DNA of 64,000 nucleotides from positions 1 to 64,000 of the forward strand of contig CAMDJW010000007.1 in the NCBI GenBank assembly GCA_945901025.1. Direction: 5' to 3'. The position numbers and the translations under genes are program-made. The notes below the pieces were generated by a model. That model did not search any database. It was not told the origin of the DNA and saw only the letters and a program-made list of their open reading frames with translations. The DNA is from Spirosoma fluviale. GTDB taxonomy: Bacteria > Bacteroidota > Bacteroidia > Cytophagales > Spirosomataceae. Shown here piece by piece: positions 33,412 through 61,256 of this stretch (position 1 is the stretch's first letter; every line of letters starts with the position of its first letter).

Positions 33412-34998
33412 TTATTTAATCAACCACATTGGGTCGTTGATATCATCTTTACCAGCATATTGACTATCAATAGCGGCTTTGTAATTCGTTGCGTTAGCTG
33501 TTCTTTCTGTCGCTGGATAGATCCAACGCAAAGCAATACGATTCGAGTTTCCATTACCAACCCCAGAAGAGAACGCTGGGAAACCTGTCCTTCTCCAGTT
33601 GAAATAAGCTTCCATTCCTGAGTTCATGAAGAAGGCTGCATATTTTTGAGAAACGATTTTCTCAATTCCTGAAGCTGCATCATATTTAACTGAAGATTGC
33701 TCATAAAACGTATTGAAGTTGAAGTTAACCGTATACTTTACTAAGTCGGCAGCATCACGTGCACCTGACTTCGAGTACGTCATTGTATTAGCGCCCTCTG
33801 CGATCCCGTAAAATGATTGAGAAGCTTTAATGCCCTTAATATACCAATCTTCCGCTGAACCTGTAGCCCAACCACGTGCATATCCTTCAGCGATGTTGAA
33901 ACATAATTCAGGATACCCCACAAGGAATGTATTTTCACCTGTATATGTTTGATAGTAACGCGAACGGTTTTGGAAAGAGTAGATACCGGGAGCAAAACCT
34001 GCACCATTCGATAAACCTGCATTTCTTGCCATATCATCAATATTATCACCTGAACCTGCTCCACGATAAGCTGTAAAGTCTGAAGCTAATTTACCAGCCT
34101 TCAAATCAGCACCTGCAGGCTCGCAAGTAGCCATCACACGTGGATCCTGTGTCTTAGATAAAAATGCTACATACGTAGAAGCCATGTTTTGACGCGTTGC
34201 ATCGAAACCGAAGTTATCTGGATTAGAAGGATACTTGTTGAAGTTGTTCCATACAAATTGCAACGACTCCGCATTCGAGCCAAGCATTGGATATTTCGTT
34301 GGGTTACCAAGCATCTCAGCGAATTTAGCTTTAACACCTAATTCCGCATCCGCATCTTTCTTTGATAACGTAATCAAAACACGTAAGCGATAAGCGTTAA
34401 CCACTTTTTGCCACTTTTTCAAATCTCCATTGAAATAGAAATCACCTGAGATAGTCTCTCCTTTGGCAGCTAAAGCTGTCATATCACTATTCGCATCATC
34501 TAACCACTTTAAGATTTGCGTGTAGATAACTTTTTGTGAATCGTATTTAGGAGCCGTGTTTTGAATCCCTTTCAAGGATTCCGTCATCGGTAAATCCCCT
34601 ACACGCTTCGACATTTGATCAAAGAAATAAGCACGGAAGAACTTACCTAAGGCAGAATATCCATTCACGTCAGCTAAACCTAACTTCTTCGCTTCCTCTT
34701 CCATCTTTACTACGTTTTTCAACGTAGTATATTGGTTTGGCATTTGACCCAAGTTATATTCATTATTTGCATAATAATTATAGTTAGAGCAATAAAATTG
34801 ATTGTAACGCATCTCCCCAGAGAATGGACGACCATTGTCGTTTATGACGTTTAATTCGATCGACTGTAAAACTAATGATGCAGGAACTTGTACCGCGCGG
34901 TTAGAGTCTTTCTCCAACTGGTCGAAGGTCTTCTCACAACTGCTTAATGCAATTAGAGAGAAGCTCAACATGCCTAAAATTATATTTTTGATTTTCAT
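33412..34998 (-). CDS. SusD/RagB family substrate-binding lipoprotein
   Basis: Starting at the ATG at 34998 the protein has 528 residues; an ATG four codons earlier (35010) is also open. The signal MKIKNIILGMLSFSLIALSS followed by Cys is a classical lipobox. The rest fits the SusD-like family: alpha-helical TPR-type region around residues 110-230 and C-terminal EAYFNWRRTGFP and ALRWIYPATER motifs. SusD proteins cap the TonB-dependent SusC channel on the cell surface and bind its ligand. The gene is 30 nt after the susC-like gene. No glycoside hydrolase is in sight, so the ligand is not obviously a polysaccharide. Confidence 0.9.
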   Translation of the reverse strand: MKIKNIILGMLSFSLIALSSCEKTFDQLEKDSNRAVQVPASLVLQSIELNVINDNGRPFSGEMRYNQFYCSNYNYYANNEYNLGQMPNQYTTLKNVVKMEEEAKKLGLADVNGYSALGKFFRAYFFDQMSKRVGDLPMTESLKGIQNTAPKYDSQKVIYTQILKWLDDANSDMTALAAKGETISGDFYFNGDLKKWQKVVNAYRLRVLITLSKKDADAELGVKAKFAEMLGNPTKYPMLGSNAESLQFVWNNFNKYPSNPDNFGFDATRQNMASTYVAFLSKTQDPRVMATCEPAGADLKAGKLASDFTAYRGAGSGDNIDDMARNAGLSNGAGFAPGIYSFQNRSRYYQTYTGENTFLVGYPELCFNIAEGYARGWATGSAEDWYIKGIKASQSFYGIAEGANTMTYSKSGARDAADLVKYTVNFNFNTFYEQSSVKYDAASGIEKIVSQKYAAFFMNSGMEAYFNWRRTGFPAFSSGVGNGNSNRIALRWIYPATERTANATNYKAAIDSQYAGKDDINDPMWLIK

Positions 34999-35028
34999 TG
35001 CTTGAATCATTTATTAAAATGAAGAATA

Positions 35029-38000
35029 TTAGAATACTAAGTTTAAGTTAACGCCATAGCTTCTAACTGATGGAGTTTGAGTACCTGTAGCGCCGTCCGT
35101 CAAGTACTGAGATAAATCAGTATCTTTTGCTTCAGCGAAGTACAATAGGTTACGTCCTACGAAAGAAATGTTCGCGCCAGAAACTGACTTACCGAACCAC
35201 GTAGATGGAAGTTTAACACCTACCACAACTTCTTTCAACATTCCGAAAGAACGGCTCATTAAGTTTCCTTCGTTTGTGTTATAATAACGACCCACATAAT
35301 CTTGTACAAAAGTCTTCACTGTGTTAGGCGCGAATTGTAATTCAGAAAAGTTAGTCACCTTTCCGTTTACATCGTATTTAATCGCAGCGCCATTCGAAAC
35401 AACCACACCTTGACCTACAAATGCTTTCACACCTAACGCGTCTTGTGGACGAGCTTCAGCGAAAATACCTTTTGTCGTTCCAATGTGACGACCACCACGG
35501 TACGTTTGTTGCTGTGTATAGTTAATAATTTTACCACCGATACGACCATCAAATAAGAAGCTTAAGCTTACATTTTTATAAGTAAACTTATTATTCAAAC
35601 CGAAAACGAAATCCGGGTTAGCATTACCTAAGTATTGCGACTGCGTTCCAGCTAATCTTTCTGGAATACCAGCTTTAGTATTAATGATTTCTCCCGTAGG
35701 GGTACGAACAAAGGCAGAACCATAAATTCTATCCGTACGATCCCCTACTTTTAAGAACGTATTTAAGTTCGTGATACCTGGATAAATTTCAGTTAACGTC
35801 TGCTGGAAAGTAGAGTAGTTCGCTAATACATCCCAGCTAAAGTCTGCTATTTGAATTGGCGTTCCTGTTACGGAGATCTCATAACCTTTCTTCTGCGTCT
35901 TGATACCATTCACTAAAGCAGATGTGTAACCTGAAGTAGATGAGATAGGTAAAGAGAAGATCGAAGGACCATCATTCGAGATGAAATAAGCCGCATCGAT
36001 TGCAATACGATTTTTAAGTAAGCGTAAGTCCATACCAAATTCCGTCTGAGAAGTCTCTGATGGATTTAAGTTTGGATTACTCAATTCGTTACCATACGTT
36101 GCTCCTGTTTGGTTATTGTAAAAGAAACCAGTTGAGTATACCGTGTTGTTTTGGTAAGATGGACCATCGTAAGGTGAGTTATAGTTTTCACCTGAATAAG
36201 TTCCCACGCGGTTATCAATCGTAGATGATGTCAAACCATCCTTCACGTTTGCAAATGAACCACGGAATTTCAAGAAAGAAACTACCTCTGGTAAATTCAC
36301 ATAATCAGATAAAACGGTAACCGCTCCAAATGATGGATAGAAGAACGAGTTTTTACCCGCTGGCAATGTTGACAATTTATCAACACGACCTGTAGCGAAA
36401 ACTGTCAAGTATTTCTTGTAAGAAAAATCTGCGGAGTAGTAAGCAGAAAGAACATTCATGTCAGAACCAAAATTACCAACTTGAACAGGCAGAGCCGAGT
36501 TCGAGAAATTATATAATCCTGGAACGTTCAAATAGTTTGTAGAAGCGAACATCGACTTGTATTGAAAAACACGTTGAGATGCACCCGCATTAATTTTTGT
36601 ATTAAAGCCTGGTAAGATATCCTTGTCAAACGTTAATAATAATTCTGTATTATTCTCAAACAATGAACGACGATCCTCACGATAATCGCCACGACGCTCA
36701 TCACGACCATACGTACCTGCAGAGTAAGGGAATTTCTCTGTACGAACCATATCCCAAGTGGTTACTTGCGTACGAGCTAATAAGTTCAAGTTTTCATTAA
36801 ACGTGTAACGCAAAGAGGCTTGACCGATGACATCCGTCTTGTAATGCGAACGTAACCACTCATATGACATGAAGTAAGGATTATTGTAACGCTGGTATTC
36901 CGCATAGATTTGTTGAACACCTTCTTTACCTTTTTGCCAGTAGTTTTTCATATCATCCATGTTCCAGTCTGCTCCTGCCCAATAAACGATGTTATATATG
37001 ATCGAGTTAGGACCGTAGTTTACGTCTGGAATGTTCGGTGTGTATTGGCGGTTGTATTGTAAGTTGGATTCAAACTTCAATTTATTTGAAAACTTATAAT
37101 CAGCCGTAATGTTAAAGTTCGTCATGTTCAATTGGGTATTTGGAACAATACCTTTTTGATAGATATGTGACGTAGAGAAACGTAAATTGTATTTCTCTCC
37201 TGTGGCAGATACTGAAATGTTATTAGTAGAAAGTATGCCCGCTTCTAAGAAACGCTTCAAGTTATCTTTTCCACGTGCAATCCAAGGCGTGCCTGAACGC
37301 TTACCTGTGATCGGGTCAACCGGTGAATCATACTGAGGAATTAATTGGCCATTAAATTTTGGACCCCAACCACCATCATAATCACCATCATTTAAACCAC
37401 CCCCTTTACCATCACCGAAAGCATAAGAACCGTGATCACCAGGACCATATTCATCTTGCACTTCTGTGATAGCATAAAAACCTGATTGTAATTGAGTAGA
37501 AGAGTTCACCTCCACAGAGAAACCACGCTTGTCAGCTGAACCACGTTTTGTTGTGATTAATATCGCACCATTTTTTCCACGGAATCCATAAAGGGCCGAA
37601 GCAGAAGCTCCTTTCAAAACGGAATAGGTTTCGATATCATCTGGAGAAATATTCCAAGTATCAGAGTTGATCGGCACACCATCTACTACATATAAAATTG
37701 TTGAACTACCACGTAATGAGATATTAGGTTTTCTCAATAACTCCGGTTGAGCACCCACGGTCAAACCAGCCACGCGACCAGATAATGCGTTGATTGCATT
37801 TGGCTCACGTGCTTTGATTGTGCTTGAACCATCTACCGATTGAATAGCCACACCAATACGACGAACATCTTTTTTAATACCTAAGGCTGTGACAACCACC
37901 TCTTGTAATTGGCGACTATCCACATCCAAAATAACCTTTAATGTAGATTGATTACCCACAGTAACAGTTTTGCTTGTATAACCAATCATGGAAAATTCCA

Positions 38001-38250
38001 AAATTGAGTTAGTTGACGCAGAGACTGCAAACTGTCCATTTGCACCTGAATTTGTTCCCTTGTTTGTTCCATTAACCTTAATGGAAACACCTGGAATACC
38101 TGCATTATCATCACTCCCGATGACCACCCCTGTAATCGAGCGCTCTTGGGCATGGGCACCCAAAAAGGCCAACTGGCACAAGGTGAAAATGAACCAAAAA
38201 CTCTTTTTTAGAGTCATTTTGGATCCATGATTATATAAATTCTTTGTCAT
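35029..38250 (-). CDS. SusC/RagA family TonB-linked outer-membrane transporter
   Basis: The 1073-residue protein has a signal peptide (a start at 38217, MTLKKSFWFIFTLCQLAFLG, would be the more usual form and ends at AHAQ). It then has a CarboxypepD_reg-like domain (SITGVVIGSDDNAGIPGVSI), a plug domain with the SusC signature RKPNISLRGSSTILYVVDGVPI and SALYGFRGKNGAILITTKRG, and a C-terminal 22-strand barrel ending in an aromatic (GVNLNLVF). It imports a ligand through the outer membrane in partnership with the SusD-like protein. It is transcribed away from the phosphonate genes, sharing a 264-nt intergenic region. Confidence 0.93.
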   Translation of the reverse strand: MTKNLYNHGSKMTLKKSFWFIFTLCQLAFLGAHAQERSITGVVIGSDDNAGIPGVSIKVNGTNKGTNSGANGQFAVSASTNSILEFSMIGYTSKTVTVGNQSTLKVILDVDSRQLQEVVVTALGIKKDVRRIGVAIQSVDGSSTIKAREPNAINALSGRVAGLTVGAQPELLRKPNISLRGSSTILYVVDGVPINSDTWNISPDDIETYSVLKGASASALYGFRGKNGAILITTKRGSADKRGFSVEVNSSTQLQSGFYAITEVQDEYGPGDHGSYAFGDGKGGGLNDGDYDGGWGPKFNGQLIPQYDSPVDPITGKRSGTPWIARGKDNLKRFLEAGILSTNNISVSATGEKYNLRFSTSHIYQKGIVPNTQLNMTNFNITADYKFSNKLKFESNLQYNRQYTPNIPDVNYGPNSIIYNIVYWAGADWNMDDMKNYWQKGKEGVQQIYAEYQRYNNPYFMSYEWLRSHYKTDVIGQASLRYTFNENLNLLARTQVTTWDMVRTEKFPYSAGTYGRDERRGDYREDRRSLFENNTELLLTFDKDILPGFNTKINAGASQRVFQYKSMFASTNYLNVPGLYNFSNSALPVQVGNFGSDMNVLSAYYSADFSYKKYLTVFATGRVDKLSTLPAGKNSFFYPSFGAVTVLSDYVNLPEVVSFLKFRGSFANVKDGLTSSTIDNRVGTYSGENYNSPYDGPSYQNNTVYSTGFFYNNQTGATYGNELSNPNLNPSETSQTEFGMDLRLLKNRIAIDAAYFISNDGPSIFSLPISSTSGYTSALVNGIKTQKKGYEISVTGTPIQIADFSWDVLANYSTFQQTLTEIYPGITNLNTFLKVGDRTDRIYGSAFVRTPTGEIINTKAGIPERLAGTQSQYLGNANPDFVFGLNNKFTYKNVSLSFLFDGRIGGKIINYTQQQTYRGGRHIGTTKGIFAEARPQDALGVKAFVGQGVVVSNGAAIKYDVNGKVTNFSELQFAPNTVKTFVQDYVGRYYNTNEGNLMSRSFGMLKEVVVGVKLPSTWFGKSVSGANISFVGRNLLYFAEAKDTDLSQYLTDGATGTQTPSVRSYGVNLNLVF

Positions 38251-38285: not shown

Positions 38286-38514
38286 AAGAGAGAATTTATC
38301 ATGTCCCTTAAGCAAAAAATAAGAAATGATTAAGAAAAATAAGGCTATGTGACCAAATTGTTTTCTTTTGAATAAACGATGTGTTATCACGCACAAAACA
38401 TAATATTAAATACAGGAATAATTCAATTTTATTTCTTTAATAAAAAATTTATATTGCAGTAACATAAAGGGGAGATTGAATTTGTTAATTTTACCATCAA
38501 CTATTTCTCAAATC

Positions 38515-39252
38515 ATGAATCCAATCAAATTAGTCATCTTAGATATGGCTGGAACAACCGTGCTAGACCAACATGAAGTTGAGAAATGCTTCAAGGAGGC
38601 CGCTATTAAAAATGAATTGTGGGCAAGTGATGAACGGATTTTGGCCTTGCAAGGATATGCAAAATTAGAAGTGTTTACGATGTTATGGGCAGAACAACTC
38701 GGCTCCTCAGACGCTTCTATTTCAGCAAAAGCTTTACAATCCTTCGAAGATTTTAAGACAATTTTAGAAGACCACTATCGGAAAAACCCAGTATTTCAAA
38801 CGGAGGGATGCCAAGAACTTTTTGAATATTTACATAAAAACGGAATTTTCATTGCATTAACAACGGGATTTTATCGAACCGTTGCAAACATCATTTTGAC
38901 AAAACTAGGCTGGAGCCAATCCTTAAATTCTAATTTTATTAACCTTAGGAATAAATCAGGTATTCATCTTTCAGTGACTCCAGATGAAGCAGGTGAAGGG
39001 CGACCATCCCCTAAAATGATTCAGTTTGCTATGAAGCAAATTGGGATAACAAACTTATCCGAAGTTATCAATGTGGGTGACACGCCTGTTGACCTAGCTT
39101 TTGGTAAAAATGCCGGGGTGAGACTTGCCCTAGGCGTATGCAATGGAACTCATACACGTGAACAATTAGCCTCATTCCCTAATGATGGATTGTTACATAA
39201 AATAGATGACCTCATTCAAATTATCGAAGATTTAAAAAATGAAAAAATATGA
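38515..39252 (+). CDS. Phosphonatase-like HAD hydrolase (TIGR03351/PhnX-like)
   Basis: I start at the ATG at 38515 (245 residues); an upstream TTG at 38476 would add 13 residues before the conserved strand. The nucleophile motif is KLVILDMAGTTV: Asp10 followed by an Ala two residues on, the DxAGT pattern of phosphonoacetaldehyde hydrolases, not the DxD of most HAD phosphatases. Lys50 in ALQGYAKLEVF stands close to where PhnX has its Schiff-base lysine (Lys53), which is suggestive only. Later motifs are LTTGFYRTV and VINVGDTPVDLAFGKNAG. The FAD oxidoreductase gene overlaps its end by 14 nt, an arrangement known for the phosphonatase-like family. Confidence 0.82.
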   Translation: MNPIKLVILDMAGTTVLDQHEVEKCFKEAAIKNELWASDERILALQGYAKLEVFTMLWAEQLGSSDASISAKALQSFEDFKTILEDHYRKNPVFQTEGCQELFEYLHKNGIFIALTTGFYRTVANIILTKLGWSQSLNSNFINLRNKSGIHLSVTPDEAGEGRPSPKMIQFAMKQIGITNLSEVINVGDTPVDLAFGKNAGVRLALGVCNGTHTREQLASFPNDGLLHKIDDLIQIIEDLKNEKI

Positions 39253-40390
39253 TTTAATTGTTGTTGGCGGTGGAATTATAGGCACTTTTAGCGCATATCA
39301 TGCACTAAAAAAGGGGAAAACAGTTCTATTATTAGAGAAAGACTCACAACCTTTTGAAGCAAGTTTTCGGAATTTTGGACAGGCCGTTCCCTCGGGACAA
39401 TCCATGGACAAGTGGTTCGATTATGGCCGCAAATCATTGCAGATTTACAAGGACTTACAAAGTGAAACGAATATCTCCTTGGTTCCCAACGGATCCTGGT
39501 ACCTTGCTTCAGATGACCAAGAATTAACGCTCTTAGAAGAGATTCAGAAACTTTTTGATGAGCGAGGATATTCAAATAAATTACATTCAGCAGATGAATG
39601 TCAGAAATCAAATGCATATTTTAAAAAGGATTATGTCAAGGGAGGCTTATTTTTACCTGAGGAAGCATCCTTAAATCCGAGATTGATGGTGCACCGAGTT
39701 CGGGAATTTATGATCCAACATATGGATCTACACTACCAAAATTTGTGCGCGGTGGTTGGCGTAGAGAAAAAAAGAGGGATTGCGAGGGTATTCACAACAA
39801 CGAACCAAAATTTTTGGTCTGAAAAAGTGATTATAGCCAATGGCAGAGACACACAATTTTTATTGCCCGAACATTACCCAGCCACAGAGTTAAAAATCAG
39901 CAAACTACAAATGCTTAGATTGGCAGCGCAAAAGCCTATATTAAAACCAAATATTCTTACCGGACTCACGATTCGTCGGTATGAAAGTTTCCATTCTTGC
40001 CCATCACATAAAAAATTAACATCCACACCGGAACAAGCCCAACTGCAAAATAAAGGCATTCACATTTTATTCAAACAAGCGGATGACGGATCCATTATTT
40101 TGGGAGATTCCCATGAATATGTTCAAGCTGGCAAACAAGCTGACTTTGGGTTTGAGATCTCTTCAGAAATCAATGAAATGATGCTCAATGAAGCCAAAAA
40201 AATAATTGACCTACCACAATGGGATGTTGACGCCACATGGGCTGGATTTTATTTGCAAGGAACCCATTCAGAGGTATTCACCAAACAAGTGGATGATGTG
40301 ATTCACATTATCAATGGTATTGGGGGGAAAGGGATGACAACCAGTCCTGGATTTACTTCTGAGTATATTCAAAAACTTTATCAGAAATAG
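39239..40390 (+). CDS. FAD-dependent oxidoreductase of phosphonate loci (TIGR03364 type)
   Basis: The 383-residue DAO-family flavoprotein starts with the dinucleotide-binding motif DLIVVGGGIIGTFSAYHALK and has the second half FRNFGQAVPSGQSMDKWFDYGR. The C-terminal FAD-contact region HIINGIGGKGMTTSPGFTSE is typical. The TIGR03364 family is known to be linked with phosphonatase-like enzymes, and members have been reported to oxidise aminoethylphosphonate or its N-methyl form to phosphonoacetaldehyde. That would feed the HAD enzyme encoded just before it. Its end overlaps the convergent acetyltransferase gene by 10 nt. Confidence 0.85.
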   Translation: MKKYDLIVVGGGIIGTFSAYHALKKGKTVLLLEKDSQPFEASFRNFGQAVPSGQSMDKWFDYGRKSLQIYKDLQSETNISLVPNGSWYLASDDQELTLLEEIQKLFDERGYSNKLHSADECQKSNAYFKKDYVKGGLFLPEEASLNPRLMVHRVREFMIQHMDLHYQNLCAVVGVEKKRGIARVFTTTNQNFWSEKVIIANGRDTQFLLPEHYPATELKISKLQMLRLAAQKPILKPNILTGLTIRRYESFHSCPSHKKLTSTPEQAQLQNKGIHILFKQADDGSIILGDSHEYVQAGKQADFGFEISSEINEMMLNEAKKIIDLPQWDVDATWAGFYLQGTHSEVFTKQVDDVIHIINGIGGKGMTTSPGFTSEYIQKLYQK

Positions 40391-40821
40391 CAAGTGAATT
40401 TTTCATGCGAATTCCTGAAGCCCACAGCTTTATAAAATTCGTGCGCTTGTGTTCTCCGTTTATTGGAAGTTACCTCGATCGATTTTATATCATAAGGCTT
40501 TAATTCTTCTCGAACTTGATTGATTAATAATTGGCCTATCCCCTTTCCCTGATACGTTTGAGTAACTATTAATTCCTCAATCTCATACACTAATCCTTCG
40601 TGGTGCAATAATAATTGGCCCAAACAGGTAATAAAACCAATGATTTCTTTTTGTTCATTTTCAGCTGCAAAAAATAGCGCATTTTCTCTAATTAGGTAAT
40701 GCTTGAAAATATGCTGAAAAACAGTAGGGTCTGAAATACGATTTTCTAGTTCATCCAATAAGGTTCGAATAGCATTTTCATCGGTTTCGATAACTTTTCG
40801 AATGTTGAAAACTGCTTTCAT
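40381..40821 (-). CDS. phnO: PhnO-like aminoalkylphosphonate N-acetyltransferase (GNAT)
   Basis: This 146-residue GNAT protein resembles E. coli PhnO (144 residues) over its whole length. The blocks LLLHHEGLVYEIEELIVTQ, YQGKGIGQLLINQV with the acetyl-CoA loop, and SNKRRTQAHEFYKAVGF plus SHEKFTCYF line up with PhnO blocks that I recall (LHHVNWIGEIQELVV, NVKRHDAHRFYLREGY, SHFRFTKAL). PhnO acetylates the amino group of aminoalkylphosphonates. The gene is convergent with the FAD oxidoreductase gene in the middle of the phosphonate locus. Substrate is inferred from similarity and place. Confidence 0.75.
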   Translation of the reverse strand: MKAVFNIRKVIETDENAIRTLLDELENRISDPTVFQHIFKHYLIRENALFFAAENEQKEIIGFITCLGQLLLHHEGLVYEIEELIVTQTYQGKGIGQLLINQVREELKPYDIKSIEVTSNKRRTQAHEFYKAVGFRNSHEKFTCYF

Positions 40822-40924
40822 TTTATGAAATTGTTAAGGGTGCGTAAACAAAAGTATAATAAATCTTAGAACCCTTCGTTCCGAGGCTAATGCTTGCTAA
40901 TTTACATGCAAAATTTTAAAAAAT

Positions 40925-41470
40925 ATGTCTGAGATAATAGAAAAAGTAATTCATTTGTTTGAAAACCATGGGGATTCGCAATATGGAGGAGAGGCCGTAA
41001 GCCAATTGGAACATGCGTTACAAGCAGCCCATTTTGCCAATGAAGCAGGTGAAAAATCAAATATTATTGTCGCAGGAATTTTACATGATATTGGACATTT
41101 GTTGCATCACTTACCGGATGATGCCCCAGAAAATGGGATCGATGATTTGCATGAGAACTTAGCCAATGACTTTCTCCAACAATATTTTACGCCAGAGGTA
41201 GTGGAACCTGTTCGATTGCATGTGGCGGCTAAAAGATATTTATGTACGGTAGAGCCGGAATATCTAGATATTTTAAGTGAGCCTTCTGTCATCAGCTTAG
41301 GTTTACAAGGAGGTCCTATGTCGGCCGATGAATGTAAAGAATTTGAAAAGAATCCATATTACGCAGATGCGGTTAAATTAAGGCGATTCGATGATCAAGC
41401 CAAAATAGCCAATTTACAAGTAAAAGAATTATCGTTTTACGTTCCCTACATGGAGTCTTTTGTTAAATGA
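40925..41470 (+). CDS. phnZ: Phosphonate degradation HD-domain oxygenase (PhnZ-like)
   Basis: The 181-residue protein belongs to the HD-domain oxygenase family of phosphonate operons (TIGR03276). PhnZ is a mixed-valent di-iron enzyme that cleaves 1-hydroxy-2-aminoethylphosphonate to glycine and phosphate. The metal ligands fit: His30 in QLEHALQ, His54-Asp55 in GILHDIGH, later His residues in DDLHENLAND and RLHVAAKRY, and a C-terminal Asp. Tyr20 and Glu23 in SQYGGEAVSQ match the Tyr/Glu pair that binds substrate in PhnZ with a constant offset of four. The next gene overlaps its stop by 4 nt. No PhnY hydroxylase gene is visible. Confidence 0.87.
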   Translation: MSEIIEKVIHLFENHGDSQYGGEAVSQLEHALQAAHFANEAGEKSNIIVAGILHDIGHLLHHLPDDAPENGIDDLHENLANDFLQQYFTPEVVEPVRLHVAAKRYLCTVEPEYLDILSEPSVISLGLQGGPMSADECKEFEKNPYYADAVKLRRFDDQAKIANLQVKELSFYVPYMESFVK

Positions 41471-42729
41471 ACTCCATTAAAAGTCGAGTAAATTTTTCTG
41501 GCAAACTAATATTTACCCATCCATTATGGTCCATGGTAGCGGCTTTTGGCTGTTATTTTTGCGTATATGGATTTAGAAAACCTTTTACAGCGGGTTTATA
41601 CACAGACCAATTTTGGATAGGAATTCCATGGAAATCAATTTTGATATCTTCTCAGATTGCCGGTTACATGTTATCCAAATGGTGTGGAATATTCATCGTT
41701 TCAGGGATTTCGTGGGAAAAGAGAACGCGTGCTATTTTGATTAGTATTCTCATAGCAGAGCTTGCCTTGGTAGGATTTGGCCTAGTTCCAAGGCCTTACA
41801 GCATTGTTTTTTTAGTAATCAATGGATTGCCATTGGGTATGATTTTTGGCTACATTCAAGGCTTTTTGGAGGGCAAGAAAAATACCGAATTATTTATTGC
41901 GGCACTGGGAAGTAGCTTTATCTTAGCGGATGGCGTTTCTAAATCTGTAGGCACCTGGCTATTAAATATCTCCATCGCTGAACATTGGATGCCTTCGTTG
42001 GCAGGCTTGATCTATACTTTGCCTTTCGTATTTTTTGTATGGATGTTGACAAAAATTCCTAGGCCCACCGACCAAGACAAGGAAGACCGAGCGGAAAGGT
42101 CAGCCATGACTCATAAAGATCGCATCGCACTAGTTAAAGAGTTGTGGCCTGGAATTCTATGCATTAGCTTATTGTATTTATTTGCTTCGCTTTTAAGAGG
42201 AGTTCGCTCTGATTTTGCCCCTGAAATATGGAAATATTTAGGTTTTGTAGGCGAGGCATCTATCTATTCACAAACGGAAATTTGGGTTACGGTAGGAATA
42301 TTAGTCATCAACGGTAGCCTTGTATTAATTAAGAAAAACCACATCGCCTTTTTTATCAGTTTATCAGCCATTGCGACAGGCTATCTATTTTTGTTGATCG
42401 CTGGATTATGGGGGGTGAATCACTTAGATCCATTTTGGCTAATTGTATTAACAGGATTTGGTATCTATTTGCCTTATTTAACGATAACCACCTCCGTTTT
42501 TGAGCGGATGATTGCCATCACTAGGCACAAGGCAAACATCGGCTTTTTAATGTATATCGTGGACTCTATTGGATACTTAGGCTATAATGTGTTGTTAATT
42601 ATCACCGGTTTTATATTACCCAATTTAAATCTGCCGTCTATATTCTTCACTTGGATTGTGATACTAGGAATTGCGGGTCTTATAATAAGCAGCTTATCAA
42701 GCCTTTATTTTTACAGAAGATTGAAATGA
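41467..42729 (+). CDS. DUF5690 family MFS-like membrane protein, candidate phosphonate permease
   Basis: A 420-residue protein with about twelve hydrophobic helices resembling the major facilitator fold. The N-terminal block FTHPLWSMVAAFGCYFCVYG and FRKPFTAGLYTDQF, and the later SQIAGYMLSKWCGIFIVSG, fit the DUF5690 family. It overlaps the PhnZ-like gene by 4 nt (ATGA), so the two are translationally coupled, which suggests that it imports or exports the substrate of that enzyme. The transport role is inference; the fold and family call are firmer. Confidence 0.75.
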   Translation: MNSIKSRVNFSGKLIFTHPLWSMVAAFGCYFCVYGFRKPFTAGLYTDQFWIGIPWKSILISSQIAGYMLSKWCGIFIVSGISWEKRTRAILISILIAELALVGFGLVPRPYSIVFLVINGLPLGMIFGYIQGFLEGKKNTELFIAALGSSFILADGVSKSVGTWLLNISIAEHWMPSLAGLIYTLPFVFFVWMLTKIPRPTDQDKEDRAERSAMTHKDRIALVKELWPGILCISLLYLFASLLRGVRSDFAPEIWKYLGFVGEASIYSQTEIWVTVGILVINGSLVLIKKNHIAFFISLSAIATGYLFLLIAGLWGVNHLDPFWLIVLTGFGIYLPYLTITTSVFERMIAITRHKANIGFLMYIVDSIGYLGYNVLLIITGFILPNLNLPSIFFTWIVILGIAGLIISSLSSLYFYRRLK

Positions 42730-43524: not shown

Positions 43525-45303
43525 CTATTTCAAATAAAGTACTGTGTTAGGAGCAAACTCAGCCCAAGTAGCTGTCCAGTCTGTATCCTTGAAAGCACCT
43601 ACGTAATCCGTAGCTGTAGTACCAGTTAAAGTAGGTAAGTTCGTTCCGATTAATGATTCAGATTTACCCGCTGTTAACGTTAAAGTAGGACGCGCTGACC
43701 ACAATGCAGTTGAAATACCTGTGTTTTCATGCGTAGTTAACACTTTGTTACCTGCAATTGCTTTAAACCAAACAGTAGGAGTTTGTGTTCCGATCAATAT
43801 AGGAAGGCTAGCATTTGCTTTTCCTCTTTGTTCTTCATTTGCAACTGCAACACCTAAACCCCAAATATTAGAGTTTGTAGAAACAGTTGAGAAACCTGTA
43901 CCTGCACCGTTTGCAGTTGAACTAGAAGGCCATCCTGGAGTTCCAGCGATAACCACATTTTTAACAACTAAGTCGCCTGCTAATGCATTTCCTTTTGCAT
44001 CACCTACTTGGCTATCAATGTATAGACCTGTAGGGTATCCCGTAATAAACGTGTTGTAGATTTTGATCTTGTTATTACGACGTAATTGCGCACCATTTTG
44101 GAAGTTAAAGTCTACGAATGATGTAGCAGAACCCCTTGGTCCAACGATTGATACGTTAGCAAATACTGGAGCAGTAAATGGAGTCTTTGCCGTTCCTGAA
44201 CCATCATTATCAACCTCAAATCCGTTAGAACCTGAACCATCGGCTAAGTTACCATCACGGTATCCTAAAGCAAATTGAACCTTTCCTACATAACCAAAGT
44301 CAACATCAAAGTCATCATCTGTTCCTTTGTAAGCAATTAAATATTTCGCATTTACTGTACCACCGAACCACTCGAATGAATCATCTAAACCATAAGAAGC
44401 TTGAATGTATTCTAACGTTGTACCAGAACCGACAGAACCCATGGTTAATGTATTAATCTCTGCGTTAGGGATGATAGGTACACCAGCATACTCAATACGA
44501 ACATATTTCAATGTACCAGAATTATCATCGTTCGTAGTTCCACCATGCCATCCTTTGTAAGCACCTTCTAATTCAATGCTAGCACCTTGGTTGTTTGTTG
44601 CTTTACCGCAAAGAACAACACCACCCCAGTCACCTGGATTACGTGCACCAACTGCTTGACCTGACGTAAATACGATAGGAGCAGCAGCCGTACCAATTGC
44701 GATCAACTTAGAACCACGGTGTACAACTAAAGTACCTTTCGTATCAATATCGCCGATAATAGTTGTTCCTGCCTCGATTGTTAAGGTACCCACTTTTGTG
44801 ATTGTACCAGCAACTAACTCTTCACCTACGCGAACGAAACCTTTCAAACGGTAGATTTTATCTTTTGTCCAAGTTACATTCCCTTCGATAACTCCTTCTA
44901 CATTAACAATAGTTTTAGGAGGGATAGCAGAAACCGTTACTGGAATAGCTACTAAAGAAGAAACTTGGTTTTTGTTATCTGTTACTTGAATAGTAAAGTT
45001 AACTGCAGTGCCAGCAGTTCCATCAATTACGTAATCCTTGATGTACTCATACGTTTTTTCGCCAGCTAAAACTTTAGAATCAAAAGATGCACCATTTTTC
45101 AAAACGGTGATTGACTTAATCCCAGCAGGAGCATTGATCGTAGCTTTTACTTGAACAGTAGCACCGATGATACCAGCTAATGTACCGGATGAACTAACAG
45201 AAGGAGCAGGAAAAACCTCTTCTTCTTTTTGACATGATTGTAACAGTGTAAATACTGCTAAAATAGCCGCGAATTTAAAAATTTGCAATTTTAAATGTTT
45301 CAT
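43525..45303 (-). CDS. Surface lipoprotein with beta-solenoid repeats, partner of a TonB receptor
   Basis: The 592-residue protein has a lipoprotein signal with lipobox LLQSC (Cys24) and a Glu/Pro-rich linker. One Ig-like region (about residues 35-125) precedes a right-handed beta-solenoid with stacked motifs such as LTIEAGTTIIGDIDTKGTLV and IVFTSGQAVGARNPGDWGG. It also has acidic loops (GTDDDFDVDFG, FEVDNDGSGT) that could bind calcium. This family is often encoded right after a TonB receptor in Bacteroidota, as here (44-nt gap). The ligand is unknown; the pair resembles SusCD in logic but not in sequence. Confidence 0.75.
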   Translation of the reverse strand: MKHLKLQIFKFAAILAVFTLLQSCQKEEEVFPAPSVSSSGTLAGIIGATVQVKATINAPAGIKSITVLKNGASFDSKVLAGEKTYEYIKDYVIDGTAGTAVNFTIQVTDNKNQVSSLVAIPVTVSAIPPKTIVNVEGVIEGNVTWTKDKIYRLKGFVRVGEELVAGTITKVGTLTIEAGTTIIGDIDTKGTLVVHRGSKLIAIGTAAAPIVFTSGQAVGARNPGDWGGVVLCGKATNNQGASIELEGAYKGWHGGTTNDDNSGTLKYVRIEYAGVPIIPNAEINTLTMGSVGSGTTLEYIQASYGLDDSFEWFGGTVNAKYLIAYKGTDDDFDVDFGYVGKVQFALGYRDGNLADGSGSNGFEVDNDGSGTAKTPFTAPVFANVSIVGPRGSATSFVDFNFQNGAQLRRNNKIKIYNTFITGYPTGLYIDSQVGDAKGNALAGDLVVKNVVIAGTPGWPSSSTANGAGTGFSTVSTNSNIWGLGVAVANEEQRGKANASLPILIGTQTPTVWFKAIAGNKVLTTHENTGISTALWSARPTLTLTAGKSESLIGTNLPTLTGTTATDYVGAFKDTDWTATWAEFAPNTVLYLK

Positions 45304-45347
45304 TTTGTTATTTGTTTTTTTATTTAGTTAATTAAATTTTAGAATTA

Positions 45348-48149
45348 TTATTTGTTAAAGGGAGAGATGACAACACCTAGAGAGATGACACGACCTGGCA
45401 TATATGATTGAATAGTTTGATCTTTACTTTTATCAAAAGAATTATCTCGGTTACCATCCTGTAAAATATAATTGTCCTGGTTTAATAGATCCGTAATTCC
45501 TCCTTTAATCATAATTGATTTAGTAATCTCTTTCGAGAAGTTAAAATCTATTACATTACGAGGCATCTCATACCAATCTGGATAGGGAGCCGGGAAGTTA
45601 TTACCTACTGCGAAGATACGCTTACCAATTACGTTGTAGTTAAAGTTCAATTGCAAACCGCGCTTCGCATCATTATAGTTTAATCCTGCGTTAATGATGA
45701 AAGGTGATTGACCTTGTAAAGGACGATCATCAGATTGAGTTGAAGCAATGGCTGGATCTAATTTAACTCGACTAAAAATATAGGTGGCATTAAAGACTAA
45801 ACTAGTCTTTCCTAAAAAAGTGGTAGGTGCATTTGCCGATAAATTCTTACGCATTTCCGCCTCGAAACCTGCCGAATAAGCTGATTGTGCATTTGCAAAA
45901 TTCAAGATGGGGTTAGAACCTGATTCGAAAACAACCTCAATTGGATTCGTAAAGTTTTTGTAGAAGGCAGCAATGCTGAATAATTCAGATGGTGTAGGAT
46001 AATTTTCAAAACGTAAATCAAAGTTTTGGATATCCGCATTTTTTAGATTTGGATTACCTGAGATTGAACGGTTGTTCACAAAATCATAGAAAGAGAAAGG
46101 TGCTAACTCACGAAACTCAGGACGGTTCAATGTCTGACCATAAGCTAAACGTAGTAACGTTTTCTCTGTAAAGTTGTAGGTAAAATTAACTGATGGCAAT
46201 AAATCCAAACGAGAATTGTCGTATTTGATCACTTTACCTAATTGATCAAATGAATTTAATTTCTGTGCATTTTGCTCTCCTCTTAAACCAGCAATAACAT
46301 TAAACTTCTTTCCTAAGGCGAAGTTCGCTGAAACATACGCTGCGATTAAGTTATTGGTCGCCTTGTAGGAGTCATTCGGATTTGTTTGCTCATCAATTCT
46401 GATACCCGTTGTGGTATTAAAGTTTTGCGGGTTAAATAATTGATCGATAGGCTGAGAAGTTTGAAAACTAGGAATTGATTTCACATAACCTAAGTTTCTT
46501 GCGCCAAAGTTTCTGGTTTTATCTTCATAAAATAAACCCGTTTTCAATTCTAATTCATTACCAGAATCCTTTGCCCCTACCGGAATTTTCTTCACGATAT
46601 TCAAGGCTGCCGTTTGCGCATTTTCGTTTAAATTAATAAAGGTTCTACCCAAAACAGCCGTTTGACCTGCTCCATTGGGAATCAATAAACTCGAATTTGA
46701 TCCATCTACATTATAACGGAAACGCTTGTAGTCTGGTTGGTTACGGAAAGCTGAGTTAAATCCAGCCATCCAGTCTAATTTCAAGGTACCCTCTTGGAAT
46801 TCGTGACGACCCGTTAACTGACCCGTGTAGATACCGCGGAATACTTGGTCAAAAGAGCGAATATCCCAAATGGACCCATTATCAAAACCAAAACGCTTTA
46901 TAAATTGTGTATTAGCTAATTGGTTATATAAATTCTTGAATTCAATTACTGATCCATTTGCGAAACGAGCAGACCAATTGTGCGCAATACCCACCCTTAG
47001 TCCATTACTAAATTGCGTATCTTTAAACTCAAATGTCTTTTCAGCCTTAGACGATGAATATAAATAATCATTACGTACCATATCAAACGTGGTCCGAGAA
47101 TTCGAATAGTTAATAGCAGTAATGTTACCGATTTTCGTCTCACCTAAATTGAACTTGAATCCGCCTGATAAGGAAGCACGCATATCTGGAAGCGCAGAAG
47201 ATTTATCGGCAACCCAAATATTTTTCAACGATGCTCCTGCCACATCACGAGCAGAACCAAGTAGGTTAATCAATTCCGTTCTTGAACCTGGGAAAAATTT
47301 AGGCAAATCAAAATAGCCCTGATCAAAACCTGTCCAAGCTAGGTTCGAGTTTTTGGTGGCATAGAAATCTGCTCCTGTGGTTCCCTCTCTATATGAACTA
47401 GAAATATCTAAAGTTAGGTAGTTATTTTCAGGGATCGACTTTGTGAAGATTTTTACCACCCCACCAGCAAACTCACCAGGAATTTCCGCAGAAGGCGATT
47501 TGAAGACCAAAATACGATCGATTTGACCTGCAGGAATGATATCAAAAGAAAAAGAACGCACATCAGTTTCCATCGAAGGAGCAAATGCATTATTTAATTG
47601 GACCGTATTGTAACGTTCATTCAAACCGCGGATATTAATAAAACGCTCACCAAAAATAGTAACACCAGGAACACGCTTCACAACTTCAGCGGCTGTACGA
47701 TCCAACGTTTTCGTGATCTGTGCAGCTGAAATTCCACTCACGACTAATTGCGCCGCTTTAATTTCCGAAATAACCGATACCTCAGTATTCGTTAAACGTT
47801 GAGCAACCACTTTTACCTCAGCTAAAGTGGAAGATTCCTCTGCTATCGTTAAATTCAAGTCAGTCACTTGGTCTGCCTCTACTTTAACATTTTCATAAAT
47901 TTTAGATTGATATCCTACAAAGGAGATCTTTAGCGAATAGGTGCCAACGGCCAATTTTCCAAAAGTGAAAAAACCATTAATGTCTGTGGCCGCTCCTTTA
48001 GTGCTTCCTTGTATTAGAACAGTAGCTCCAATGATATCTTCATTAGACTTTACATCTTTAATAGTTCCTCTGATAACCCCAGTTTGTTGCGCAAAAGTCG
48101 TGATTGAAAGAAACAAGAATGTGATTAAATAAAAATAGGTGCGCTGCAT
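45348..48149 (-). CDS. TonB-dependent outer-membrane receptor with carboxypeptidase-like domain
   Basis: Starting at the ATG at 48149 the protein has 933 residues and a clear signal peptide (MQRTYFYLITFLFLSITTFA); the ATG at 48161 would add four. Next come a CarboxypepD_reg-like domain (GVIRGTIKDVKSNEDIIGAT), a plug (TLDRTAAEVVKRVPGVTIFG, RGLNERYNTVQLNN) and a 22-strand barrel with an outer-membrane-beta C-terminal domain. Unlike the SusC-like protein above, it lacks the SusC plug signature, so it is a classical TonB receptor. It heads a two-gene operon with the beta-solenoid lipoprotein. Its upstream region holds a 25-nt tandem duplication. Confidence 0.9.
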   Translation of the reverse strand: MQRTYFYLITFLFLSITTFAQQTGVIRGTIKDVKSNEDIIGATVLIQGSTKGAATDINGFFTFGKLAVGTYSLKISFVGYQSKIYENVKVEADQVTDLNLTIAEESSTLAEVKVVAQRLTNTEVSVISEIKAAQLVVSGISAAQITKTLDRTAAEVVKRVPGVTIFGERFINIRGLNERYNTVQLNNAFAPSMETDVRSFSFDIIPAGQIDRILVFKSPSAEIPGEFAGGVVKIFTKSIPENNYLTLDISSSYREGTTGADFYATKNSNLAWTGFDQGYFDLPKFFPGSRTELINLLGSARDVAGASLKNIWVADKSSALPDMRASLSGGFKFNLGETKIGNITAINYSNSRTTFDMVRNDYLYSSSKAEKTFEFKDTQFSNGLRVGIAHNWSARFANGSVIEFKNLYNQLANTQFIKRFGFDNGSIWDIRSFDQVFRGIYTGQLTGRHEFQEGTLKLDWMAGFNSAFRNQPDYKRFRYNVDGSNSSLLIPNGAGQTAVLGRTFINLNENAQTAALNIVKKIPVGAKDSGNELELKTGLFYEDKTRNFGARNLGYVKSIPSFQTSQPIDQLFNPQNFNTTTGIRIDEQTNPNDSYKATNNLIAAYVSANFALGKKFNVIAGLRGEQNAQKLNSFDQLGKVIKYDNSRLDLLPSVNFTYNFTEKTLLRLAYGQTLNRPEFRELAPFSFYDFVNNRSISGNPNLKNADIQNFDLRFENYPTPSELFSIAAFYKNFTNPIEVVFESGSNPILNFANAQSAYSAGFEAEMRKNLSANAPTTFLGKTSLVFNATYIFSRVKLDPAIASTQSDDRPLQGQSPFIINAGLNYNDAKRGLQLNFNYNVIGKRIFAVGNNFPAPYPDWYEMPRNVIDFNFSKEITKSIMIKGGITDLLNQDNYILQDGNRDNSFDKSKDQTIQSYMPGRVISLGVVISPFNK

Positions 48150-48215
48150 AATGAAAGTCATGTTGTATGGTTAACTAGTGTATTACTGTTTCAATTCAAT
48201 AATGATTAATTTAAT

Positions 48216-48265: not shown

Positions 48266-48343
48266 CAAAATTAAGTTAATGAAAAACCTTACTAATTACG
48301 ATACCGTTAGTGTACTATTAAGAAATTGTTAAAAAAGATTTAG

Positions 48344-48365
48344 ATTTATTAACAATTTATTAACA
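48344..48365. repeat. Two 11-nt tandem repeats (PHO-box-like periodicity)
   Basis: ATTTATTAACA occurs twice head to tail (48344-48354 and 48355-48365). An 11-nt repeat period is one helical turn and is typical of OmpR/PhoB-family response-regulator sites. The region 48162-48570 has no gene, and both the receptor gene (minus) and the small exported protein gene (plus) start from it. Function is inference. Confidence 0.55.
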
Positions 48366-59703: not shown

Positions 59704-59798
59704 ATTATTTAACAATTCCTTAATATCTTTATAAATACTCTTACATTGATATTAACCAACTTTAGTAAGTATACACAATATCTTAATTTATTTAACCC

Positions 59799-61256
59799 AT
59801 GTTTGGACTTGAACCCACTCTATTTTTCCTATTATTCTTTTGCTTGTTTGCCGCATGTGCTTTTGAATTTGTCAACGGATTTCACGATACAGCAAATGCA
59901 GTAGCCACTGTTATTTATACGCATTCATTAAAGCCTACGCAGGCTGTGGTTTGGTCAGGATTCATGAATTTTCTGGGTTTACTTACCGGTGGCGTAGGGG
60001 TTACGATGAGTATTATTGGCCTACTCCCCACTGAGCTCCTCATTGATTCTAACGTATATCATTCCATGGCGATGGCACTTTCTTTATTGCTTTCGGCCAT
60101 ATTGTGGAATTTAGGAACTTGGTTTTTTGGTATTCCAGCTTCCAGTTCTCATACGTTGATTGGTTCTATCATTGGTATTGGCTTAGGCCATGCCTTATTG
60201 CCAGAAAATTCGAATAAAAATATTTCGTCGGTCAACTGGGACAAGGTGATTGAGATAGGCCAAGCGCTATTTCTTTCCCCATTGTTTGGTTTTTCTTTGG
60301 CGATTATTTTGATGTATATCTTAAAGAAAACCATTTCAAATAAGGATATATTTAAAGAGCCTAAGAAAAATTCACCTCCCCCACTTTGGATCAGATCCAT
60401 CTTGATTTTTACCTGTACACTCGTTTCATTTTTTCACGGTAGAAATGATGGTCAAAAAGGAATAGGTCTGGTTATGGTTATTCTAATTGCATTTTTACCT
60501 GGATATTTTGCCATTAATACCACCCTGGATTTAAATATGGTTCAGAATAGTTTGAATACCGTTCAAACTGTTTCAGTCAAAATCGATACACTGCCCCTTT
60601 CAGAAAAAGAATTAGCTAGCTATCACCAGTTATTAGCCTCATCGGCAGATTTAAAGACTATTTTAGCTAATAAGCCCGACATTAAAAACCTAAGTACGAC
60701 TCAAAAATTCAATATTAGAAAAGCGGCCTTGACGATCAATAAAAATGCGAAAAAATTAATCGAGAGTGAATCTGTTTCCCTTTCCGATGAGGATAAATCA
60801 GCTTTTAAAAAGGCTACCCAAGGTGATAAAGCTCCATTCTTTGCCTTTGGTGCTTCTTCGGCCACAGGGATGGCTGGAGTAACCGATTTTGCTCCTGCTT
60901 GGGTCATGTGGATGATCGCACTTTCATTAGGCTTAGGAACGATGATTGGTTGGAAAAGAATTGTTGTAACCATCGGCGAAAAAATAGGTAAGGACCATTT
61001 AACGTATGCCCAAGGAGCGTCGGCTGAATTAATCGCATCAATAACCATAGGTTTAGCTACGGCATATAAATGGCCTGTGAGTACCACACATGTATTAAGT
61101 TCAGGTATTGCCGGCACCATGGTAGCGTCAAGAGGCATAAAAAATCTACAAGGAGGAACCGTAAAAAATATTGTGATGGCTTGGGTATTAACTCTTCCTG
61201 TGACCATCCTTTTATCAGCTCTACTCTTTGCCTTTTTCCGTTGGATCGTAGGCTAA
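59799..61256 (+). CDS. pit: PiT family inorganic phosphate transporter
   Basis: The 485-residue inner-membrane protein has about ten hydrophobic helices. The two repeated PiT signatures are present: FVNGFHDTANAVATVIYTHS near residue 24 and VSFFHGRNDGQKGIGLVMVI near 205, with SSSHTLIGSIIG and STTHVLSSGIAGTMVASRG. A larger loop inserts at about residues 250-345. PiT proteins import phosphate as a metal complex with protons. It sits alone; a phosphate-related function fits the phosphonate locus elsewhere in the window, but no shared operon exists. Confidence 0.92.
   Translation: MFGLEPTLFFLLFFCLFAACAFEFVNGFHDTANAVATVIYTHSLKPTQAVVWSGFMNFLGLLTGGVGVTMSIIGLLPTELLIDSNVYHSMAMALSLLLSAILWNLGTWFFGIPASSSHTLIGSIIGIGLGHALLPENSNKNISSVNWDKVIEIGQALFLSPLFGFSLAIILMYILKKTISNKDIFKEPKKNSPPPLWIRSILIFTCTLVSFFHGRNDGQKGIGLVMVILIAFLPGYFAINTTLDLNMVQNSLNTVQTVSVKIDTLPLSEKELASYHQLLASSADLKTILANKPDIKNLSTTQKFNIRKAALTINKNAKKLIESESVSLSDEDKSAFKKATQGDKAPFFAFGASSATGMAGVTDFAPAWVMWMIALSLGLGTMIGWKRIVVTIGEKIGKDHLTYAQGASAELIASITIGLATAYKWPVSTTHVLSSGIAGTMVASRGIKNLQGGTVKNIVMAWVLTLPVTILLSALLFAFFRWIVG

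What the first reader, a model, noticed from the sequence alone, without database searches (positions are those of the whole stretch)
38515..42729. Compact aminoalkylphosphonate module without PhnW or PhnY
Five genes in 4.2 kb belong to phosphonate catabolism by motif: a DxAGT phosphonatase-like HAD enzyme, a TIGR03364-type FAD oxidoreductase overlapping it by 14 nt, a PhnO-like acetyltransferase, a PhnZ-like HD oxygenase with the Tyr20/Glu23 pair, and a DUF5690 membrane protein coupled to it by an ATGA overlap. The standard partners are missing: no PhnW transaminase before the HAD and no PhnY hydroxylase before the HD enzyme. The HAD/FAD pair could form a self-contained route in which the flavoprotein makes phosphonoacetaldehyde from (N-methyl)aminoethylphosphonate and the HAD cleaves it. 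The HD enzyme would then act on a hydroxylated relative. Two C-P cleaving enzymes side by side with an acetyltransferase suggests either two substrates or an undescribed branch.
Basis: partly seen in the sequence, partly recalled or inferred. Interest (0 to 1): 0.85.

Follow-up and report, generated by a model that had tools for sequence, protein, structure and literature searches.

The report
Bacteroidota phosphonate-scavenging locus with own importers
A Bacteroidota bacterium carries a gene set that very probably takes up natural phosphonates and splits them by two routes to obtain phosphate; the enzyme trio has been described before, but its pairing with particular outer- and inner-membrane importers and a shared, possibly phosphate-related control site is less well charted.

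Summary
The chemistry is not new: TIGR03364 flavoenzymes (PbfD) make phosphonoacetaldehyde from (N-methyl-)aminoethylphosphonate without PhnW (2023); a PhnX / TIGR03364 / TIGR03276 trio without PhnW is reported in Achromobacter (2024); an orphan PhnZ beside hydrolytic clusters was read as an (R)-HAEP route (2021). A SusC-SusD pair lies divergently upstream; the best genome-wide relative of this SusD lies within 20 kb of the HD gene in 17 of 24 Spirosomataceae genera and 8 of 9 genomes outside the family. DUF5690 lies within 20 kb of the HAD in 18 of 24 genera, and its profile aligns end to end, at modest score, with GlpT/UhpT-type antiporters. Where HD and HAD are apart, SusD is found with HD and DUF5690 with HAD-FAD, never the reverse: two sub-modules, fused here. 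A conserved TTAACAATTTCTTAA-like site precedes susC, a neighbouring TonB receptor, a Pit phosphate transporter and, elsewhere, a PhoX gene, suggesting phosphate-starvation control. All substrates are inferred. New variant of a known kind.

The parts
33412..35010 (-). SusD-like lipoprotein (PF12771)
   Evidence: 198.6 bits; its best genome-wide relative lies within 20 kb of HD in 17 of 24 genera
35029..38250 (-). SusC-type TonB-dependent outer-membrane transporter
   Evidence: TIGR04056, 444.6 bits, cut-off 368.25
38318..38337 (-). candidate regulatory site in the susC-HAD divergent promoter region
   Evidence: similar element in all 12 genus loci aligned
38515..39252 (+). phosphonatase-like HAD hydrolase
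   Evidence: closest to TIGR03351 (below cut-off); Asp10, Lys50, Arg163, Asp189 invariant in 22 and aligned with PhnX Asp12, Lys53, Arg160, Asp186
39239..40390 (+). TIGR03364 FAD oxidoreductase, PbfD type
   Evidence: 348 bits, cut-off 285.1
40381..40821 (-). GNAT acetyltransferase, substrate unknown
   Evidence: PhnO model below cut-off; in all 12 whole genus loci, not labelled in any locus fetched from other genera
40823..40837 (-). weak copy of the candidate regulatory site
   Evidence: one mismatch to the 15-mer; low matrix score (4.8)
40925..41470 (+). PhnZ/TmpB-type HD oxygenase (TIGR03276)
   Evidence: 231 bits; ligands and YxxE at least 95% conserved in 53
41467..42729 (+). DUF5690 membrane protein, organophosphate-antiporter-like carrier
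   Evidence: profile match to GlpT/UhpT/UhpC; Arg37 and Arg244 aligned with GlpT Arg45 and Arg269
43525..45303 (-). neighbouring lipoprotein of unknown family, beside the TonB receptor
   Evidence: no family hit; lipoprotein-like N terminus by eye
45348..48161 (-). neighbouring TonB-dependent receptor with two copies of the candidate site upstream
48317..48364 (.). two facing candidate regulatory sites upstream of the TonB receptor
59705..59724 (+). candidate regulatory site 75 nt before the PHO4 gene
59799..61256 (+). Pit-type phosphate transporter (PHO4)
   Evidence: PF01384, 297.9 bits

Best explanation
A phosphorus-scavenging locus for natural aminophosphonates, built from two sub-modules. 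Module A is HAD-FAD-DUF5690: an organophosphate-antiporter-like carrier (DUF5690) brings 2-aminoethylphosphonate (AEP) or N-methyl-AEP through the inner membrane, the FAD oxidase (PbfD type) oxidises it to phosphonoacetaldehyde, and the HAD enzyme cleaves that through a Schiff base on Lys50 to acetaldehyde and phosphate. Module B is SusC-SusD-HD: a TonB-driven outer-membrane pair imports phosphonates or their esters, and the HD di-iron oxygenase splits a ready-made (R)-1-hydroxy-aminophosphonate, most likely (R)-HAEP, to glycine and phosphate, so that no PhnY hydroxylase is needed. In several relatives an exported-looking esterase of the alkaline-phosphatase superfamily stands in module B. A site shared with the Pit transporter and a PhoX gene suggests control by phosphate starvation. 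Shown: family membership, active-site residues, conserved linkage, the split into two modules, no PhnW found in the genome. Inferred: every substrate, every direction of transport, the regulation.
For: FAD over its family cut-off; PbfD enzymes, of which PbfD1 is annotated TIGR03364, make phosphonoacetaldehyde from M1AEP and in part AEP (PMC10590968). HAD profile matches PhnX at 2e-35 with catalytic residues aligned and invariant in 22 of 22. HD over its cut-off with ligands and YxxE. One genome per genus, 24 genera: HD within 20 kb of HAD 15, HAD of DUF5690 18, HD of best SusD 17. In the 9 genera where HD and HAD are apart, SusD is near HD in 6 and near HAD in 0; DUF5690 is near HAD in 5 and near HD in 0. 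Outside the family, 9 HD-centred loci: HAD in 6, FAD 7, DUF5690 8, SusC 8. A phosphodiesterase or propeller-phosphoesterase gene in 6 of the 9 HD loci that lie apart from HAD. DUF5690 to OPA carriers. Shared upstream site. No PEP mutase hit, so catabolic rather than biosynthetic.
Against: No substrate was tested. The HD protein scores higher against TmpB (137 bits) than PhnZ (100 bits), so a trimethylated hydroxyphosphonate is possible. The HAD is below both phosphonatase cut-offs. The own genome has 7 PhyH genes and 1 TauD gene elsewhere. The window has no alkaline-phosphatase gene between FAD and GNAT, though 7 of 12 genus loci do. DUF5690 has a second, better-scoring copy away from phosphonate genes in the own genome. 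The 20-kb stretch around the FAD gene of one congener (L076, G011) has no HAD, HD or SusCD. In 7 of 24 genera the best SusD is not within 20 kb of HD, and in G132, G270 and G424 the linked best SusD is only about 30% identical. The OPA match is modest (probability 41); GlpT alone scores 22.5, hardly above one reversed control (21.8), and the structure prediction failed.
Confidence: 0.6

Rival explanations
1. The HD enzyme is the second half of a normal two-step oxidative pathway whose hydroxylase (a PhyH or TauD protein) is encoded elsewhere in the genome.
For: Seven PhyH genes and one TauD gene in the own genome; three PhyH proteins match the methylphosphonate hydroxylase model NF052437 weakly (47.7, 40.6 and 31.9 bits; cut-off 500), and for the third it is the best match.
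Against: No PhyH within 20 kb of HD in 27 genomes, as far as contigs reach; a PhyH profile from the own genome finds none among 1082 ORFs of the fetched loci, although leave-one-out it finds each of its 7 members at 2.9e-6 or better (the TauD search had no such control). Two of the three proteins score better against ectoine hydroxylase, and no own PhyH or TauD protein passes any NCBIfam cut-off.
Confidence: 0.15
2. The HD enzyme serves a different hydroxyphosphonate: (R)-1-hydroxy-2-trimethylaminoethylphosphonate (TmpB-like) or hydroxymethylphosphonate (GmPhnZ-like), delivered by SusCD.
For: Higher score to TmpB than PhnZ; NCBIfam TmpB 182.6, HMP dioxygenase 162.4 bits.
Against: Both are far below their cut-offs of 300; the YxxE and ligand motifs do not separate the kinds.
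Confidence: 0.2
3. SusC/SusD import a glycan or other carbon source and their neighbourhood to phosphonate genes is accidental.
For: SusCD-type proteins are numerous: the window SusD alone matches up to 13 places in one genome.
Against: The window SusD's best relative genome-wide is within 20 kb of HD in 17 of 24 genera and 8 of 9 genomes outside the family, also where HAD-FAD are elsewhere.
Confidence: 0.1
4. DUF5690 is a general organophosphate or sugar-phosphate carrier only incidentally linked.
For: Second own copy on C23 beside a TonB receptor, a metallophosphoesterase and a zinc dehydrogenase.
Against: Within 20 kb of HAD in 18 of 24 genera, with only 1-3 matches per genome.
Confidence: 0.25

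Closest known systems
Achromobacter phosphonatase cluster PhnX-HpnW(TIGR03364)-PhnHD(TIGR03276) (PMC11203657; passages read)
   Same: Same three kinds of enzyme together, PhnW absent from the operon; HAEP proposed as HD substrate by modelling
   Different: LysR regulator there; the passages read mention no SusCD and no DUF5690; PhnX there is a purified phosphonatase, here a TIGR03351-like HAD below both cut-offs
PbfD2 + PhnX route of M. fucicola (PMC10590968; abstract, section 8, section 15 part 1 of 2, and passages read)
   Same: FAD oxidase of the PbfD group replaces PhnW and feeds a phosphonatase
   Different: In what I read, PhnY/PhnZ appear only as a separate pathway and no outer-membrane importer is discussed
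Orphan phnZ beside phnWX or phnWAY clusters (PMC8154272; passages read)
   Same: PhnZ-type enzyme added to a hydrolytic pathway to process (R)-HAEP
   Different: There with PhnW; here PhnW-free and with SusCD
Phosphate utilisation systems, PusCD, of Flavobacterium (PMC8115612; sections 16 and 19 and passages read)
   Different: The phosphonate enzymes and carriers are not named in the text read; induction by phosphate depletion is shown there, only suggested here
AepP, a GlpT-like AEP permease (PMC8316502; passages read)
   Same: OPA-type major facilitator carrying AEP, with conserved phosphate-binding residues
   Different: DUF5690 is only remotely similar to GlpT and is a separate Pfam family

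Membership tests
PbfD / TIGR03364 | score over NCBIfam cut-off | tested here: met
   348 vs 285.1 bits
PbfD / TIGR03364 | gene beside a phosphonatase or phosphonatase-like gene | tested here: met
   14-nt overlap; HAD-FAD gap of 335 nt or less in 39 of 46 same-strand pairs (L067 and L096 are one contig)
PbfD / TIGR03364 | oxidises M1AEP/AEP to phosphonoacetaldehyde | not testable with these tools
   needs enzyme assay
PhnX (TIGR01422) | score over cut-off | tested here: not met
   79 vs 220 bits
PhnX-like (TIGR03351) | score over cut-off | tested here: not met
   169.5 vs 218.9 bits; only 2 of 27 genomes of the family exceed it
phosphonatase mechanism | nucleophile Asp in DxAGT, cap-domain Schiff-base Lys, Arg, acidic residue | tested here: met
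   aligned with PhnX Asp12, Lys53, Arg160, Asp186; invariant in 22 (residue roles recalled)
Phn-HD oxygenase (TIGR03276) | score over cut-off | tested here: met
   231.3 vs 214.6 bits
PhnZ/TmpB HD oxygenases | H..HD..H..H..D ligands and YxxE loop | tested here: met
   H30, H54-D55, H76, H99, D156, Y20, E23 (motif from PMC8177086, passages)
TmpB (NF049941) | score over cut-off | tested here: not met
   182.6 vs 300
HMP dioxygenase PhnZ1 (NF052439) | score over cut-off | tested here: not met
   162.4 vs 300
PhnY/PhnZ pathway | PhyH-type 2OG hydroxylase beside HD | tested here: not met
   0 of 27 genomes within 20 kb, as far as contigs reach
PhnO (NF007530) | score over cut-off | tested here: not met
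   61.5 vs 142
OPA antiporters (GlpT/UhpT) | end-to-end homology with the two substrate-site arginines (role recalled) | tested here: inconclusive
   hhalign score 39.7, E 2.8e-4, probability 41; R37/R45 and R244/R269 aligned; controls 13.1 to 21.8; no PDB hit
Phosphate utilisation system (PusCD) | SusC/SusD pair beside organophosphorus enzymes | tested here: met
Phosphate utilisation system (PusCD) | induced by phosphate depletion | not testable with these tools
   only a shared upstream site seen

The most novel reading that the evidence does not exclude
Bacteroidota have a complete surface-to-cytosol system for phosphonates: a dedicated SusCD pair feeds a hydroxylase-free HD oxygenase with pre-formed hydroxy-aminophosphonates released from glycans or lipids by exported esterases, while DUF5690 is a new family of aminophosphonate antiporters for the FAD/HAD arm. 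This would make hydroxy-aminophosphonate esters a recurrent natural phosphorus source and add a SusCD class with a non-carbohydrate cargo.
Probability: 0.45. Interest if true: 0.68.

Novelty: new variant of a known kind. Interest (0 to 1): 0.42.

Why it matters
The enzymes are known, but I found little on the transport side of phosphonate use in Bacteroidota. The linkage gives DUF5690 (no paper) and one SusD lineage testable functions, and a candidate Pho-type site from which a regulon could be read in this genus. If the HD enzyme really lives on pre-formed hydroxyphosphonates, (R)-HAEP or a relative must be common enough in nature to sustain dedicated importers.

Tried and rejected
Structure prediction of DUF5690 from 7 near-identical sequences failed (pLDDT 35) and was not searched. 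DUF5690 profile against PDB sequences: no hit; Pfam MFS_1 in only 2 of 23 members. Against single sequences the DUF5690 profile gives a partial match to UhpT (35.9) and weak ones to GlpT (22.5) and UhpC (20.9); only the three-member OPA profile gives the full-length match, so the claim is kept moderate. The 24 rotations of the reversed OPA profile all score 15.0 and are in effect one control; the rotated forward alignments are not controls at all, because local alignment recovers the match. A class-III aminotransferase in the window (24278-25615), first considered as PbfA, is closest to glutamate-1-semialdehyde aminomutase models, below their cut-offs. The other five class-III aminotransferases of the genome were not typed, so PbfA is not excluded. 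The clustering of the 15-mer in the window (4 of 9 genome-wide) is not independent evidence, because the pattern was drawn after seeing window sites; the independent part is the matrix trained without the window and the sites outside it. The gene picker drops some real genes where a longer ORF lies on the other strand (the HD of L085 was lost that way), so locus counts are lower bounds.
Full report
Observation. The five ORFs, the 14-nt and ATGA overlaps and most motif calls are right. FAD is TIGR03364 (348 bits, cut-off 285.1), HD is TIGR03276 (231, cut-off 214.6), DUF5690 is PF18943; the HAD is nearest to TIGR03351 but below cut-off; the GNAT is below the PhnO cut-off. The host is an unnamed 2.64-Mb genome, 98.6% complete; close relatives in genome contigs are titled Cytophagaceae or Spirosoma fluviale MAGs, so I call the family Spirosomataceae, by those titles only.

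Chemistry already known. PbfD enzymes oxidise M1AEP, and PbfD2 also AEP, to phosphonoacetaldehyde, replacing PhnW in M. fucicola; PbfD1 is annotated TIGR03364 (PMC10590968, abstract, sections and passages). Achromobacter phosphonatase clusters hold PhnX, HpnW (TIGR03364) and PhnHD (TIGR03276) without PhnW in the operon, with HAEP as modelled HD substrate (PMC11203657, passages). PhnZ homologues beside phnWX (15 of 1,186) or phnWAY (24 of 75) clusters, never together with pbfA, were read as (R)-HAEP processing; (R)-HAEP is natural (PMC8154272, passages). So the missing PhnW and PhnY can be explained without a new branch.

Missing partners. PhnW: two hits, both below cut-off, both cysteine desulfurases. 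PEP mutase: no hit. PhyH: 7 in the own genome, none on the window's contig; TauD: 1; none passes a cut-off in NCBIfam. In 27 genomes no PhyH lies within 20 kb of HD, as far as contigs reach; several assemblies are fragmented. A profile of the 7 own PhyH proteins finds none among 1082 ORFs of the fetched loci; leave-one-out it finds all 7. PbfA was not tested beyond listing six class-III aminotransferases, of which the window's was typed.

The larger unit. Gene order SusD-SusC-HAD-FAD-(alkaline phosphatase)-GNAT-HD-DUF5690 is identical in the 12 genus loci that hold susC and HAD whole, with the phosphatase in 7. Set aside before that count: L065, L066, L068, L097 and L098 (cut by contig ends), L096 (same contig as L067) and L076, whose 20 kb around the FAD gene lack the rest of the island. 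L063-L069 are contigs of genomes also searched as G handles. In 38 genomes of the genus, read off with FAD counted at E below 1e-60: HD and FAD both 22, HD only 2, FAD only 4, neither 10 (Fisher one-sided p = 1e-4; relatedness not corrected, and many are incomplete MAGs).

Wider linkage. TIGR03276 is found in 143 of 222 family genomes (69 over cut-off; a few of the 143 are weak hits) and TIGR03364 over cut-off in 183 of 222. One genome per genus with a real HD, 24 genera (HAD counted above 100 bits of TIGR03351): HD within 20 kb of HAD 15, HD of DUF5690 13, HAD of DUF5690 18, HD of the best SusD 17, HAD of the best SusD 11. In the 9 genera where HD is not near HAD (some assemblies fragmented), SusD is near HD in 6 and near HAD in 0, DUF5690 near HAD in 5 and near HD in 0. 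This separates two modules: SusC-SusD-HD and HAD-FAD-DUF5690. Of these 9 HD loci, 6 hold an alkaline-phosphatase-superfamily phosphodiesterase or a propeller-phosphoesterase. N termini of these esterase families look exported by eye in most of the examples printed, unlike HD and HAD and FAD; no signal predictor was run. In 296 genomes drawn from the phylum, 12 have a strong HD hit, 9 of them (7 genera) outside the family. In 20 kb around those 9 HD genes: HAD in 6, FAD 7, DUF5690 8, SusC 8; the best SusD of the genome is within 20 kb of HD in 8, though in G270 and G424 at only about 30% identity. A DNA-binding cupin regulator family seen in six of these nine loci was not seen beside the window locus.

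Enzyme sites. A 22-member HAD profile matches PhnX structures at 2e-35; Asp10, Lys50, Arg163 and Asp189 are invariant and align with PhnX Asp12, Lys53, Arg160 and Asp186 (the roles of the PhnX residues are recalled). HD residues Y20, E23, H30, H54, D55, H76, H99 and D156 are at least 95% conserved among 53 sequences and match the YxxE and ligand motifs described for PhnZ and TmpB (PMC8177086, passages).

DUF5690. A 23-member profile aligns end to end (25-414 to 32-434) with a GlpT/UhpT/UhpC profile: score 39.7, E 2.8e-4, probability 41. Single sequences: UhpT 35.9 (residues 20-106 only), GlpT 22.5, UhpC 20.9; LacY 16.5, AdeQ 15.7, PHO4 14.6, another MFS protein 13.1; their reversed forms 13.8-16.6 except PHO4 at 21.8; HAD, FAD and HD profiles 13.9-19.0; the reversed OPA profile 15.0 in 24 rotations. 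Invariant Arg37-Lys38 align with GlpT Arg45-Lys46 and invariant Arg244 with Arg269, residues named in salt bridges of the GlpT cycle (PMC10221096, passages). AepP, a known AEP permease, is a GlpT relative (PMC8316502, passages). This supports an aminophosphonate:phosphate antiporter but does not prove it.

Control site. The susC-HAD intergenic region holds a conserved TTTCTTAA-N2-ATTTCTTAT-like element in the 12 genomes aligned, least well in L075. A matrix trained on the 11 relatives' susC sites, without the window, gives as its four best window hits susC (29.1), the TonB receptor at 48161 (19.9 and 11.6) and the PHO4 transporter (12.3), all intergenic; the next hit scores 9.5 and is inside a gene. 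In the relatives' loci the second-best hits are before the TonB receptor in L063, L064 and L070 and before another outer-membrane protein in L072 and L075; in L071, L073, L074, L094 and L095 they are inside genes or again in the susC region. A 15-base form, drawn with the window sites in view, occurs 9 times with up to one mismatch in the genome (3 for the backward control). Of the 5 outside the window, 2 lie inside ORFs and 3 between genes: one before a PhoX-family gene, one before a TonB receptor, one beside genes with no phosphate link. I read it as a candidate Pho-type site; no experiment supports it yet. PusCD systems in Flavobacterium are induced by phosphate depletion and are said to lie with phosphonate-degrading enzymes (PMC8115612, sections 16 and 19 and passages); its text gave no Pho-box.

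Print status. Searches showed me no paper describing DUF5690 or a SusCD pair tied to a PhnZ-type enzyme. These are listings: searches listed 15 of 27, 10 of 110 and 10 of 19 matching papers. Only open-licence PMC papers are held, and no supplements were read. The one-sentence mention in PMC8115612 may overlap with part of this.

Verdict. New variant of a known kind.

Noticed in passing
window 43525-48161: TonB receptor plus large lipoprotein of no known family, with two facing candidate Pho-type sites upstream; resembles the low-phosphate TonB-lipoprotein pairs described for Flavobacterium.
   Followed up: partly
window 42917-43465: 182-aa lipoprotein-like protein with no family hit, conserved beside the locus in several genus members.
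   Followed up: no
window 59799-61256 and 19934-20884: Pit phosphate transporter with the candidate site 75 nt upstream, and a metallophosphoesterase related to ones seen in phosphonate loci of relatives, with a weak copy of the site (matrix score 7.2) 38 nt upstream.
   Followed up: partly
G000 C23 (L111: 7839-9122): Second DUF5690 gene beside a TonB receptor, a beta-helix protein, a metallophosphoesterase and a zinc dehydrogenase; perhaps a sister organophosphate locus.
   Followed up: partly
L153, L154, L156, L157, L159, L160: Family of HTH-cupin regulators (typed in L156) recurrently beside the phosphonate locus in other families of the phylum; a protein of like domains in L101.
   Followed up: partly
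L158 4183-8195: HD locus lacking HAD and TIGR03364 FAD labels but holding another DAO-family oxidase, a class-V aminotransferase and an aldehyde dehydrogenase: a possible alternative arm.
   Followed up: no
L076 (G011): Congener with the TIGR03364 gene but no HAD, HD or SusCD in the 20 kb fetched, beside PHO4 and a metalloenzyme-superfamily gene.
   Followed up: no
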